Shown piece by piece: positions 19,812-30,850 of a stretch of DNA of 64,000 nt. The notes under the pieces were generated by a model. The model had not been told where the DNA came from, did no database searches, and saw nothing but the letters and a program-made list of their open reading frames with translations. Numbering within the stretch: position 1 is the first letter of the stretch; the number at the start of each line of letters is the position of its first letter. The stretch comes from Clostridia bacterium (GTDB lineage Bacteria > Bacillota > Clostridia > TANB77 > CAG-508): assembly GCA_017528085.1 (NCBI GenBank), contig JAFXPH010000002.1, positions 531,898 through 595,897 of the forward strand, given 5' to 3'. The translations under genes were made by a program, and so were the position numbers.

Positions 19812-19865
19812 TATACAAATAAGAAAAGTGAATTTTGTTGTAAAGAAAGGAGTTATATTAAAACG

Positions 19866-20020
19866 ATTGTTAGCGCCCGGACTTATTTTTTAAGTTGACG
19901 AGGTCTAGGTTTATCGAAAGATTCGGCGGATTACCTAGTGGCTTTGGATTTTAGCCATATAGATATTTGAAAAACTAATAGTGATGTTAGAACAAAAATA
20001 TCTTATAAATCTATTTGCTT
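19866..20020 (+). ncRNA. glmS ribozyme/riboswitch
   Basis: The leader carries the glmS ribozyme core in order: AGCGCCCGGACTT (19872-19884), GACGAGG (19897-19903), TTATCGAAA (19911-19919), TTCGGCGGATTACC (19922-19935), and then a TGGCT...AGCCA stem for the P3 region. By analogy with known members, cleavage falls between A19872 and G19873. Glucosamine-6-phosphate acts as the cofactor for self-cleavage, which destabilises the glmS mRNA and gives feedback control. The 3' boundary is approximate. Confidence 0.92.
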
Positions 20021-24589: not shown

Positions 24590-24817
24590 ACAAAAAGCCC
24601 TTATGCATATTTGCATAAGGGCGAATCTATCGCGGTACCACCTTAATTACTTAAAATAAGTATCTCTTATTACTATAACCTGTAATAACTCGGTCTACTA
24701 TTAATAGCCAGCTTAGGAGTAGATTTCATAAATGTCTTTGTTTGCTTACACCTACCGCAAACTCTCTTTAAAAAACTTATTTATTACTTAGTTCCTAATT
24801 AATTGTTTAAAATATGA
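24590..24817 (-). ncRNA. Seryl T-box leader (riboswitch)
   Basis: Minus-strand leader of DUF1653-serS. The invariant T-box sequence GGTGGTACCGCG lies at 24631-24642. The terminator is GCCCTTATGCA / TGCATAAGGGC (24597-24622) followed by five T. The Stem I base pairs TTAGGA with TCCTAA, and the specifier just inside is TCT at 24721-24723 in the context GAAATCTAC, a serine codon. Uncharged tRNA-Ser would bind and favour the antiterminator, raising serS expression. Confidence 0.93.
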
Positions 24818-27309: not shown

Positions 27310-27374
27310 TATAGTGTTGATACATGTTGTGTCCCTTTATGGGACCTTTTTCCAATACTAAGGAGGAAGTTTTT

Positions 27375-27644
27375 ATGAGCGTAGCAGCACAGTTTAAGCC
27401 TTTTGATTCTAAGGGACTTACCGTCAAGAAGTTGGATGACTTTTCCATCAAGCTCTACTACCGGGGTGTGAAAGTTGATGCTCTCAAGAGCGCACTCAGC
27501 ACCTTGGCCATGCACACCAACTCTGTTGGTTATGAGCTCGTGTGGAAGGAACCCTGCTATTTCGTATATGTGATGCGCTTCTATTGTGCGCAGAACACGT
27601 ACAATGCGATGGGGATGGTTTCCGAGGTTCGTAAGGGTCTGTAA
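27375..27644 (+). CDS. Cassette 3: GC-richer orphan gene, unknown 89-aa protein (paralogue of cassette 4)
   Basis: Not recognised. I start at the ATG at 27375 (MSVAAQF), which follows AAGGAGGAAGTTTTT. The product shares PFDSKGLT, DDFSI, YRG, ALSxLAM and NTYNAM with its tandem neighbour, about half of all residues by eye. The pattern looks like one small alpha/beta fold: strand, strand, helix (LKSALSTLAM), strand, strand, helix (YNAMGMVSEVRK). Codons are GC-rich (CTC, ATC, GTG). It is on the plus strand between two minus-strand core genes, with its own promoter and terminator. Confidence 0.8.
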   Translation: MSVAAQFKPFDSKGLTVKKLDDFSIKLYYRGVKVDALKSALSTLAMHTNSVGYELVWKEPCYFVYVMRFYCAQNTYNAMGMVSEVRKGL

Positions 27645-27826: not shown

Positions 27827-28096
27827 ATGAGCAGACAGACACAGGTAATACCATTCGATTCCAAGGGCTTGACAGCAAACAAGGTCGATGATTTCTCAAT
27901 CCGGATTTTTTACCGTGGGAGTAATCGTTCCGGTCTTAAAAATGCGCTTAGCGCATTAGCCATGTGGGCCTTTGGCGAATACGAACTCGAGAAAGATCAA
28001 CCCGATGAACTCATCTACAGGATGACGTTCAACTGCGCAGGTGATACCTACAACGCAATGAACAGGTTGGCTGATGCGAGGAAGTTACTCTGCTAG
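27827..28096 (+). CDS. Cassette 4: GC-richer orphan gene, unknown 89-aa protein (paralogue of cassette 3)
   Basis: Not recognised. Start ATG at 27827 with AAGGAGGAAGTTTT. Residues PFDSKGLT, DDFSIR, FYRG, LKNALSALAM, YEL and DTYNAMNRLADARK match the tandem cassette 3 protein, yet the codons differ widely, so the duplication is not recent. It ends in Cys. Soluble, no signal peptide. It is a complete plus-strand unit with its own promoter (27733-27761) and terminator. The terminator also ends the convergent rnjA transcript. Function unknown; the small size and duplication would suit an antitoxin-like, inhibitor-like or phage-cargo protein, but nothing proves this. Confidence 0.8.
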   Translation: MSRQTQVIPFDSKGLTANKVDDFSIRIFYRGSNRSGLKNALSALAMWAFGEYELEKDQPDELIYRMTFNCAGDTYNAMNRLADARKLLC

Positions 28097-28163: not shown

Positions 28164-30149
28164 TTAAACTTCCATTATAATTGGTAATACCATTGGATTT
28201 CTCTTTGTTTTTTGATAAATAAAATCTTTTAAATTATCCTTAATTGTAGATTTTATTGTTGCCCAATCTGTTATGTTTTTTTCAACACATTTATCTAACT
28301 CTAATACTATGTGGGCCTTAACTTCTTCCATTAAGTTTTCTGACTCTCTTACATATACGAATCCTCTAGATATAATATCTGGTCCAGCTACAATAGATCC
28401 GTTTGAGTCCATTGTAAGAACTACAATTATAAGACCATCTTGTGATAAGTGTTGTCTATCTCTTAATACGATATTTCCAACATCTCCTACACCAAGACCA
28501 TCAACCATTATCTTACCAAATGGTACTTTTCCATTAAACTTCCATTCGTTTTCATTAAGCTCTAATACTTTACCATTTTTCATAAGGATGATATCTTCTT
28601 GCTTATAACCAAGTGATTTTGCTGTTTCACTATGAGCTATAAGTTGTCTGTATTCACCATGAACTGGTATAAAGTATTTTGGTCTTACTAAAGAAATCAT
28701 TAATTTTTGTTCTTCTTGGCAAGCGTGTCCAGATACGTGAACATCTGCAAGTGAAGAATAAACCACTTCTGCTCCTATCTTCATAAGATCATCTATAACC
28801 TTAGCAACATATTTCTCGTTACCTGGAATAGGTGTTGCTGAGATAATTACTAAATCATGAGCTGTTATATTAACCTTTTTATGCTCGCCATTAGCCATTC
28901 TTGTAAGAGCTGACATTGGTTCACCTTGGCTACCTGTTGTTATAATAACTAATTGCTCATCTGTATAGTTCTTAATCATATCTATATCGATAAATACATT
29001 CTTTGGCACATTAATATATCCAAGTTCAATAGCTGTCTCTATCATATTTATCATACTTCTACCACATACAGCAATTTTTCTATTATATTTAACAGCTGAA
29101 TTAACTATTTGTTGAACTCTGTGAACGTTAGATGCGAATGTTGCTACAACAATTCTTTTCTTACAGTTCAAGAATAACTTATCAAAAACCTCTCCTACTG
29201 TCACTTCTGACATTGTATATCCTTTTCTTTCAGAGTTTGTACTATCTGAAAGTAATGCTAATACCCCTTTATTTCCAAGTTCTGCAAGTCTTCCAAAGTC
29301 CATTCTTTCACCATTAATTGGTGTATAATCAATTTTAAAGTCACCTGTATGAACAACAACACCAACTGGTGTATGAATTGCAAGTGCTACAGAGTCTGGA
29401 ATGCTGTGACAACTTCTAATGAATTCAATATTAAATACACCAAGTTTAATAGTATCTCCTTGTTCTACTGTAGTTAAGTTTGCTATTCTAGTTAAATTGT
29501 GTTCATCTAGTTTATTCTTTATTAATCCTATTGTTAATTTAGTTGCATAAATAGGTACGTTTAGTTGTTTTAAAAAATATGGTATAGAACCAATGTGATC
29601 CTCATGACCATGAGTTACAACTAAACCTCTAATTTTTTCTTTATTCTTTTCTAAATATGAGAAGTCTGGTATTACTAAGTCGATACCTAGCATATCATCT
29701 TCTGGGAATGCAACACCACAGTCTACTATGATAATATCATCACCATATTCAAATACTGTTATGTTCTTTCCTATTTCTTCAATACCACCTAGTGGTATAA
29801 TTTTTAAGTTTTCCTTCTTAAATCTAAAATCTTCTTTATTTGTTTCAACTTTTATAATGTCTTTTTTCTCAGATTTAGATAAACCTTTATTTCCTACGTT
29901 TGCAATTTCTCTTTTCTTTTGAACTTCTAAATATTTTTTATGATCTCTCTTTTCAATAGCTTTTTTTGATTTATCTACTACTGATACTTCTTTTCTTGGA
30001 GCGTGCATTATAGCAGTTCCTTCGTTCTCATTCTTAACAATATTTCTTTTTGAAACTACTCTTTTTTGAGGCTTTCTACCTGTTGGTTTCTTTGCAGGAG
30101 CAGCCTTCTTTGGTAACTTTTTACCAAATTTTTTCTCGTTTTTTTCCAT
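28164..30149 (-). CDS. rnjA: Ribonuclease J
   Basis: 661 aa. RNase J has 5'-to-3' exonuclease and endonuclease activity and is a main mRNA decay and rRNA maturation enzyme in Gram-positives. After a basic, Lys/Pro/Arg-rich extension of about 105 residues not found in B. subtilis RNase J, the beta-lactamase/beta-CASP core starts at LKIIPLGGIEEIGKN. Metal ligands are in THGHEDHIGS (about 179-188), with SCHSIPDSVAL, HTGDFKID, DSTNSE and the C-terminal HVSGHACQEE and PVHGEYRQ following. The basic extension may bind RNA or partners. Upstream lies an unusual structured leader or ncRNA (30205-30528). Confidence 0.95.
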   Translation of the reverse strand: MEKNEKKFGKKLPKKAAPAKKPTGRKPQKRVVSKRNIVKNENEGTAIMHAPRKEVSVVDKSKKAIEKRDHKKYLEVQKKREIANVGNKGLSKSEKKDIIKVETNKEDFRFKKENLKIIPLGGIEEIGKNITVFEYGDDIIIVDCGVAFPEDDMLGIDLVIPDFSYLEKNKEKIRGLVVTHGHEDHIGSIPYFLKQLNVPIYATKLTIGLIKNKLDEHNLTRIANLTTVEQGDTIKLGVFNIEFIRSCHSIPDSVALAIHTPVGVVVHTGDFKIDYTPINGERMDFGRLAELGNKGVLALLSDSTNSERKGYTMSEVTVGEVFDKLFLNCKKRIVVATFASNVHRVQQIVNSAVKYNRKIAVCGRSMINMIETAIELGYINVPKNVFIDIDMIKNYTDEQLVIITTGSQGEPMSALTRMANGEHKKVNITAHDLVIISATPIPGNEKYVAKVIDDLMKIGAEVVYSSLADVHVSGHACQEEQKLMISLVRPKYFIPVHGEYRQLIAHSETAKSLGYKQEDIILMKNGKVLELNENEWKFNGKVPFGKIMVDGLGVGDVGNIVLRDRQHLSQDGLIIVVLTMDSNGSIVAGPDIISRGFVYVRESENLMEEVKAHIVLELDKCVEKNITDWATIKSTIKDNLKDFIYQKTKRNPMVLPIIMEV

Positions 30150-30204
30150 TATTATCCCTTCTTTTCTCCTTAAGTTAATTTAAATATAATCATTCGTAAA
30201 GCAA

Positions 30205-30528
30205 AAATAATAAAAACCAAAATGCTAAAACATTTTGGTTACCAATTTTAATACATGAAATTATAAAATTACATAAAACAAAAATAATCCCTAAAATCAG
30301 CATCTTTTAAGGTTCATTCTTATTAACTATCATTTTCTACCGCCCACTTTGAATAATTAGACTAGCATCTATAGATATTTTTCTCATCTCTCATTATATA
30401 TCTATATAATCTAACTATTCTAAAAACGATAATAATCTTTTAAATAATTCACTAATTATTTATTTTCCGCTTACAAATTTTATTTTATATATAAATCTCA
30501 TTATTGTATCAATTTCTTGATAACCACT
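30205..30528 (-). ncRNA. Candidate structured ncRNA or attenuated rnjA leader (about 320 nt)
   Basis: No ORF, but a consensus promoter begins it and a terminator ends it (stem AACCAAAATG / CATTTTGGTT at 30215-30240, then a T-rich tract). Strong internal pairing is visible on the minus strand: GGTTATCA near the 5' end with TGGTAACC just before the terminator; hairpin AAATAATT-AGTG-AATTATTT; and a long hairpin with GAATAGTTAGA / TCTAATTATTC and TATAGATAT / ATATCTATA. The unpaired stretch AAAGTGGGCGGTAGAAAATGATAG (shown here as two motifs, AAAGTGGGCGGTAG and AAAATGATAG) is the least AT-rich part. It does not match T-box, RNase P, SRP or tmRNA signatures that I know. Confidence 0.6.
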
Positions 30529-30534
30529 AGTACA

Positions 30535-30563
30535 ATTATACTATATATGCCATTTTATGTCAA
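30535..30563 (-). promoter_or_regulatory. Consensus promoter of the ncRNA/rnjA leader
   Basis: Minus strand: TTGACA (30558-30563), 17 bp, TATAAT (30535-30540), a perfect sigma-A promoter. It lies directly behind the cassette 5 terminator. Confidence 0.85.
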
Positions 30564-30570
30564 ATTTAAA

Positions 30571-30617
30571 GCAAAAAAAGAACAGCCCTGCAGGCTGTAT
30601 TACTGGTCTGCAGGGCT
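30571..30617 (-). terminator. GC-rich terminator of cassette 5
   Basis: Ten-pair stem AGCCCTGCAG / CTGCAGGGCT with a 14-nt loop (30584-30617), followed on the minus strand by TGTTCTTTTTTTGC. Confidence 0.85.
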
Positions 30618-30628
30618 AAATACCACAA

Positions 30629-30850
30629 TTACACGAGTCGATAGAGCTGTCGCTTGAGATCAACCCTCTGGAGCCTATCCTTCAGTCCCAAATGGAACCT
30701 TTCGAAATTGACTCCCGAGTCGTATCTGACTTCGACCATATCGGGCTTGGCATCCGGAATCCTGAGTTCAATACCTCTTACGGTATAATCCATCTGAAAC
30801 CGTTTTGCCTTCACCGGGCTCTCGAATACAATTGTCATTGCTAGTGACAT
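30629..30850 (-). CDS. Cassette 5: GC-richer orphan gene, unknown 73-aa protein
   Basis: Not recognised. The ATG at 30850 follows AAGGAGG. The small basic protein alternates predicted strands (MTIVFES, FQMDYTVRGIELRIP, MVEVRYDS) with a C-terminal Arg/Leu-rich helix (LKDRLQRVDLKRQLYRLV), which might bind nucleic acid or a partner. Codon use (CTC, CGA, ATC, GAC) is unlike the AT-rich mazG-like and rnjA genes around it. It has its own promoter and terminator. A 5-bp stem (TGTAC-AAAC-GTACA on the minus strand, 30876-30889) lies at the start of the leader. Confidence 0.72.
   Translation of the reverse strand: MSLAMTIVFESPVKAKRFQMDYTVRGIELRIPDAKPDMVEVRYDSGVNFERFHLGLKDRLQRVDLKRQLYRLV

What the first reader, a model, noticed from the sequence alone, without database searches (positions are those of the whole stretch)
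30205..30563. Uncatalogued structured RNA between a consensus promoter and a terminator, directly upstream of rnjA
A perfect TTGACA-17-TATAAT promoter starts a non-coding stretch of about 320 nt ending in an intrinsic terminator 55 nt before the rnjA start codon. The RNA shows several strong stems, including pairing of its 5' GGTTATCA with TGGTAACC at the terminator base, so folding of the 5' end could compete with the terminator. rnjA has no convincing second promoter. This could be an attenuated leader through which RNase J senses its own level, or an independent small RNA such as a 6S-like rod. I recognise no known class.
Basis: partly seen in the sequence, partly recalled or inferred. Interest (0 to 1): 0.72.

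Follow-up and report, generated by a model that had tools for sequence, protein, structure and literature searches.

The report
Conserved attenuator-like leader of RNase J gene
The stretch in front of the gene for RNase J, a main RNA-degrading enzyme, is the long folded start of that gene's own messenger; it is conserved across one family of gut bacteria, contains a probable built-in stop signal, and probably helps the cell control how much RNase J it makes.

Summary
On the minus strand a perfect promoter (30563-30535) is followed by ~314 noncoding nt, an intrinsic-terminator-like hairpin (30240-30215), then 65 nt to rnjA (start 30149). No Rfam family matches, even at E<=10. Comparison with 180 other rnjA loci shows a conserved mRNA leader in one family of uncultured gut Clostridia (67 of 76 family loci). 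Shared parts: consensus promoter; a covarying hairpin about 6 nt from the predicted 5' end (83 of 87 long segments; shuffled 28); an A(A/U)GAGAU box; (A/G)UUCGG motifs (72 of 115; shuffled 3.5); terminator-like hairpins (68 of 115; shuffled 3-10); and a long-range helix P1 joining the box to the strand before the Shine-Dalgarno site (72 of 115; swapped strands 41). A model of the 5' element finds almost only rnjA. It is not 6S: the genome has a canonical 6S elsewhere. Best reading: a leader that limits rnjA by premature termination and guards the mRNA 5' end, most likely autogenously, like rne and rny leaders. Termination and autoregulation are inferred, not shown.

The parts
30535..30563 (-). 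sigma-70-type promoter TTGACA-17-TATAAT
   Evidence: 12 of 12 matches; 89 of 115 distinct relatives' leaders also start at a perfect consensus, 23 with one mismatch, though loci were selected for <=3 mismatches
30150..30528 (-). rnjA leader, 379 nt from the predicted +1 (30528) to the start codon
   Evidence: fold -78.0 kcal/mol; +1 is inferred from the -10 position
30507..30522 (-). 5'-terminal hairpin UAUCAA-GAAA-UUGAUA
   Evidence: covariation in relatives; pair probability 0.58-0.86; model R1 40.7 bits
30492..30505 (-). conserved box AAUAAUGAGAUUUA
   Evidence: near the promoter in 67 of 76 family loci
30485..30497 (-). P1, 5' strand GAUUUAUAUAUAA
   Evidence: pairs with 30177-30189; swap control
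30461..30472 (-). CGGAAAA motif (AAGCGGAAAAUA; relatives mostly UUCGGAAAA)
   Evidence: CGGAAA in 74 of 115 leaders, shuffled 4.8
30215..30240 (-). terminator-like hairpin, T-rich run to about 30202
   Evidence: pair probability 0.72-1.0
30177..30189 (-). P1, 3' strand UUAUAUUUAAAUU, behind the terminator and next to the Shine-Dalgarno site
30161..30173 (-). Shine-Dalgarno region UUAAGGAGAAAAG
   Evidence: sequence
28164..30149 (-). rnjA, RNase J, 661 aa with a basic N-terminal extension

Best explanation
It is the long 5' leader of the rnjA mRNA, a cis-acting control element peculiar to one family of gut Clostridia. Shown by comparison: the leader starts at a near-consensus promoter, begins with a conserved hairpin about 6 nt from the predicted 5' end, carries conserved A(A/U)GAGAU and UUCGGAAAA elements, often contains a terminator-like hairpin ahead of rnjA, and is closed by a long-range helix (P1) joining the 5' box to the strand just before the ribosome site. 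Inferred: many transcripts stop at the hairpin, read-through sets rnjA output, and the 5' hairpin plus P1 guard the 5' end of the read-through mRNA. Most likely, but inferred: the sensor is RNase J itself (a 5'-to-3' exonuclease and endonuclease), whose action on the leader lowers its own synthesis, in the manner of RNase E on rne and RNase Y on rny.
For: Conserved parts above shuffled or swapped controls: 5' hairpin 83 of 87 vs 28 with double changes 32 vs 11; (A/G)UUCGG 72 of 115 vs 3.5; terminator-like hairpins 68 of 115 vs 3-10; P1 72 of 115 vs 41, max 51, and mean z -1.17 vs 0.08 in a control stretch. Few strong promoters behind the terminator: 2 of 64 with <=2 mismatches vs 5.0 shuffled. 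Dedicated to rnjA: of 32 model hits at E<=1e-4 in 144 genomes, 27 lie before rnjA by coordinates and 2 more in leaders cut by contig ends. Precedents: Synechocystis rne, B. subtilis rny, review list.
Against: No expression data; termination and feedback unmeasured. 47 of 115 leaders show no terminator by my criteria; 43 of 115 show no P1 of score >=10 and swapped strands often reach it. No conserved partner for the terminator arms: mean z -0.11 and -0.02. RNAalifold on 20 aligned own-genus leaders returned no consensus structure. Five own-genus loci (L064-L066, L068, L070) lack the box. Nothing ties RNase J to the leader except gene identity and precedent.
Confidence: 0.5

Rival explanations
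1. Passive leader: the 5' hairpin and P1 only stabilise a long mRNA 5' end against 5' exonuclease, and the hairpins with U runs are processing sites or weak pauses. Output is not adjusted to any signal.
For: No conserved antiterminator; many terminator-like hairpins are AU-rich and weak, -4 to -9 kcal/mol; the 5' hairpin is the best supported part.
Against: UUCGGAAAA blocks conserved in sequence and dedication to one gene are more than stabilisation needs.
Confidence: 0.2
2. Regulatory leader with another sensor: a small-molecule riboswitch, another RNA-binding protein, or the translation state controls termination or translation of rnjA.
For: Conserved sequence blocks in a closed multi-branched fold with a closing helix, as in aptamers.
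Against: No Rfam riboswitch match; essentially one gene per genome, a decay enzyme, with no metabolic theme; middle of the leader varies strongly between clades.
Confidence: 0.15
3. Independent small RNA: the terminated product of about 314-325 nt acts in trans and rnjA merely follows it.
For: Perfect promoter and a terminator frame the RNA.
Against: Synteny with rnjA throughout; P1's 3' strand lies between terminator and rnjA: best partner after the terminator in 34, before in 9, overlapping in 7 of the 50 leaders that have both; 6S is elsewhere.
Confidence: 0.1
4. Chance: AT-rich intergenic DNA that happens to fold.
For: The conserved sequence is limited to short blocks.
Against: Motif, hairpin, terminator and P1 counts all exceed shuffled or swapped controls.
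Confidence: 0.03

Closest known systems
rne 5' UTR of Synechocystis, RNase E (PMC10989929, abstract and passages read)
   Same: Long leader of the gene of a main decay ribonuclease; reported control by cleavage in the leader and by premature termination before the gene.
   Different: Different enzyme, phylum and RNA; there a U-rich cleavage site, here a 5' hairpin, UUCGGAAAA motifs, an intrinsic-terminator-like hairpin and a closing helix; feedback not shown here.
rne 5' UTR of E. coli (361 nt, from passages of PMC10989929)
   Same: Long structured leader in cis, ribonuclease gene.
   Different: No sequence or model match: all Rfam families were scanned; that Rfam holds a model of this leader is recalled, not checked.
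rny mRNA of B. subtilis, RNase Y (PMC10303841, abstract and passages read)
   Same: Autogenous control of a Gram-positive decay ribonuclease partly through its 164-nt 5' UTR, with RNase J1 taking part.
   Different: No comparable conserved hairpin, closing helix or terminator was described in the passages seen.
Riboswitch or protein-binding transcription attenuators of Firmicutes (recalled)
   Same: Intrinsic-terminator-like hairpin between the only strong promoter and the gene.
   Different: No conserved antiterminator pairing found.

Membership tests
6S RNA (RF00013) | match to the 6S covariance model | tested here: not met
   no hit at E<=10 in 30100-30620; the genome's 6S is at G000:C15:76816-77007, 78.6 bits
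Any Rfam 15 family | score at or near gathering threshold | tested here: not met
   for the window; 12 relatives' loci at E<=1: only sub-threshold hits, miRNA-like ones among them
Autogenous ribonuclease leader (rne, rny, rnc, pnp type) | lies in the long structured 5' UTR of a ribonuclease gene | tested here: met
   379-nt leader of rnjA, conserved before rnjA in relatives
Autogenous ribonuclease leader (rne, rny, rnc, pnp type) | the enzyme cuts or binds its own leader and lowers its synthesis | not testable with these tools
   needs biochemistry or reporters
Transcription attenuator | intrinsic terminator between promoter and gene | tested here: met
   sequence prediction only: 30240-30215; 68 of 115 leaders
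Transcription attenuator | no strong promoter behind the terminator | tested here: met
   2 of 64 with <=2 mismatches vs 5.0 in shuffles; window best 3 mismatches
Transcription attenuator | conserved antiterminator exclusive with the terminator | tested here: not met
   mean z -0.11 (5' arm) and -0.02 (3' arm), 67 leaders; candidates in the window alone (z -2.3 and -2.1)

The most novel reading that the evidence does not exclude
A new family of cis-regulatory RNA dedicated to RNase J: the leader measures 5'-exonuclease activity directly. The hairpin near the 5' end and the closing helix P1 decide whether RNase J can enter its own mRNA, and entry behind the polymerase, or loss of P1, feeds into termination and translation: a feedback loop for the 5'-to-3' decay enzyme.
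Probability: 0.35. Interest if true: 0.75.

Novelty: new variant of a known kind. Interest (0 to 1): 0.6.

Why it matters
Autogenous leaders are reported for RNase E, RNase III, PNPase (PMC3997798) and RNase Y (PMC10303841). In the listings and passages seen here (searches, open-access library only) I saw none for RNase J, a main 5'-to-3' exonuclease of many bacteria. A conserved leader dedicated to rnjA gives a concrete, testable candidate with defined parts to mutate, and an RNA element without a match in Rfam 15.

Tried and rejected
DNA similarity of the whole 381-nt region: only short blocks in relatives; the informative ones are the 5' element in front of rnjA. 6S: rejected. RNase P: a better place exists elsewhere in the genome, below its cut-off (47.2 bits). 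CGGAAAAUAUU pairing with AAUAUUUUCUG in front of the terminator: striking in part of the own genus (e.g. L032, L038, L049, L074) but weak overall (mean z -0.42, 86 leaders). Upstream ORF: AUGAGAUUU looks like a start codon, but many relatives have AAGAGAU. Consensus folding of 20 own-genus leaders gave nothing. Secondary R1 hits: those in G128 and G074 lie in ORFs; weaker ones (e.g. G050:C42, G118:C9) were fetched and only tested for RNase J by tblastn; G024's hit is unplaced; G385's (another family of the class, 36.4 bits) was not followed up.

146 have the box, 121 distinct, 115 of 120-650 nt. These were chosen for a promoter with at most 3 mismatches and GAGAT within 60 nt, so promoter and GAGAU counts are partly circular (178 of 181 loci have some such promoter, weak evidence by itself); UUCGG, hairpin, terminator and P1 were not selection criteria. 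A1 holds 64 of 70 hand-picked 5' elements. The box count misses at least one locus that has it (L063, where an upstream promoter was picked), and two loci hold under 150 nt upstream.

Full report
OBSERVATION. The finding gives no strand; the RNA is on the minus strand. Promoter TTGACA-17-TATAAT spans 30563-30535 and matches the consensus at 12 of 12 positions. The predicted +1 is about 30528. A hairpin with a T-rich tail lies at 30240-30215 and rnjA starts at 30149. The transcript strand folds better than 100 dinucleotide shuffles (z -4.42). Rfam 15 has no match here at gathering scores (in the window only a T-box at 24614-24803 and a glmS riboswitch at 19861-20014) nor at E<=10 in 30100-30620 beyond two chance-level hits.

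RELATIVES. The genome is a 1.64-Mb draft in 16 contigs. Named relatives are metagenome-assembled Clostridia, many from guts of rabbit, deer and sheep by their isolate names. From memory, and from no call, size and composition suggest the GTDB order TANB77; this was not tested. A DNA search of 96 genomes found only short matches, but the best ones cover the 5' part of the RNA and sit in front of rnjA. I therefore collected 100 rnjA upstream stretches from unnamed relatives and 80 named loci: 181 with the window, 146 with the box near a promoter, 121 distinct, 115 used for statistics.

ANATOMY. (1) Promoter: 89 of 115 leaders have the perfect consensus, 23 one mismatch. (2) A 5'-terminal hairpin, usually 5-7 nt from the predicted +1 and 4-7 nt before the box. 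Of 87 distinct long pre-box segments 83 hold a stem, against a shuffled mean of 28 (max 37); 53 different stem pairs occur, such as UUACC/GGUAA, UUAUCGC/GCGAUAA, UGCCA/UGGCA, UAGCAU/AUGCUA, UAUCAAU/AUUGAUA. On the model-fitted alignment A2 (68 matches from 70 sources) 86.9% of cells pair, with 32 double changes against 11 in shuffles; on the MAFFT alignment A1 the figures are 81.0%, 23 and 8.4. Part of the own genus lacks the hairpin and begins CAGUAUUAAUGAGAUUUAUA. (3) Box A(A/U)GAGAU, also a selection criterion. (4) Motif (A/G)UUCGG, mostly UUCGGAAAA: 72 of 115 leaders, shuffled 3.5; GUACGG 17 of 115, shuffled 0.8; GGUGUG 29 of 115, shuffled 1.6. (5) Terminator-like hairpin: 68 of 115 leaders, five shuffled sets 3-10; repeated forms are UUAGUUUAA..UUAAACUAAUUUUUU and AUAGUCUAGAAAUAGACUAUUUUUU. 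(6) Long-range helix P1: the 18 nt from GAGAU on pair with the 80 nt before the Shine-Dalgarno site: mean z -1.17, 37 of 115 below -2, against 0.08 and 5 of 96 for a control stretch. Swapping partner strands between leaders with different boxes: own partner in the top 5% in 28 of 115, control stretch 5 of 96; helix score >=10 in 72 of 115 against 41 swapped (max 51). Box flanks differ between clades and partner strands follow, e.g. AGAUUUAUGUAAGAA with UUCUUGCAUAAGUUU (L078), AGAUUAAAUUUGUAUAUA with UGUAUAUGAAUUUAAACU (L169), UUAAGUUUUAUGUAU with AUACAUAGAAUUUAA (L138). P1 is therefore supported as a group property, not in every leader.

WINDOW. With the complete leader the best fold (-78.0 kcal/mol) shows this plan: 5' hairpin 30522-30507, P1 between 30497-30485 and 30189-30177, terminator inside. 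So the 5' strand may change partner when the polymerase reads through, but nothing shows that it controls the terminator.

SPECIFICITY. Model R1 (45 positions, 5 pairs) finds one clear place in the window (40.7 bits; the next 17.6). In 144 genomes 32 places reach E<=1e-4: 27 in front of rnjA by coordinates, G119 and G111 in leaders cut by contig ends, G024 unplaced, G128 and G074 in coding sequence. In 341 genomes drawn from the class, 5 have a hit at E<=1e-4, four of them in the family; the fifth (G385) was not examined. Among fetched loci the box lies near a promoter in 38 of 45 (own genus), 29 of 31 (other genera of the family), 2 of 3 (f3), 0 of 3 (f2), 1 of 6 (f4; L105, not examined further), 0 of 13 (f5). 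The element thus belongs to one family, perhaps with traces in a sister family.

MECHANISM. Shown by comparison: a conserved cis leader with the parts above. Inferred: termination at the hairpin and read-through into rnjA, because strong promoters are not enriched behind the terminator (2 of 64 against 5.0 shuffled). Not found: a conserved antiterminator. Inferred further: RNase J as the sensor. Reasons are gene identity, the conserved 5' end (where a 5' exonuclease acts), the dedication to one gene, the basic N-terminal extension of these proteins (119 residues in the window, 38 K/R against 16 D/E; median 81.5 residues in the 80 of 154 ATG-start loci where the core motif was reached), and precedent. 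In Synechocystis, rne is reported to be controlled by cleavage in its leader and premature termination (PMC10989929, abstract and passages); B. subtilis RNase Y controls its own mRNA (PMC10303841, abstract and passages); a 2013 review lists rne, pnp and rnc as autoregulated (PMC3997798, passages).

LITERATURE LIMITS. Searches in the open-access library gave no described rnjA leader element or RNase J autoregulation in the listings and passages I saw; PMC12096830, PMC7283877, PMC5383250 and PMC3297567 were searched for passages only. Subscription papers and supplements were not seen.

VERDICT.

Noticed in passing
window 27324-27644 (+), 27827-28096 (+), 30629-30850 (-): Small ORFs near rnjA in stretches of higher G+C (about 0.37-0.46 against about 0.30 around), without Pfam hits. 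The first two are paralogues (50% identity), with no other copy in the genome at E<=0.01.
   Followed up: partly
window 28164-30149 (-): RNase J carries a lysine/arginine-rich N-terminal extension of 119 residues before the core motif; relatives have one too (median 81.5 residues). Possible RNA-binding tail.
   Followed up: partly
L032-L052 (own-genus clade), just before rnjA: A hairpin (GUAUAUUAA..UUAAUAUAC) lies between the Shine-Dalgarno site and the start codon in most of these leaders, seemingly shortening the spacing.
   Followed up: no
L064-L066, L068, L070: Variant leaders in the own genus: promoter followed at once by AGUUUAAA(A/U)UGUUCGGAAA, without hairpin and box.
   Followed up: no
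window 24614-24803 (-) and 19861-20014 (+): T-box leader and glmS riboswitch/ribozyme above gathering score.
   Followed up: no
window 30190-30303 (-): A 37-aa hydrophobic ORF runs over the leader terminator; not checked in relatives.
   Followed up: no
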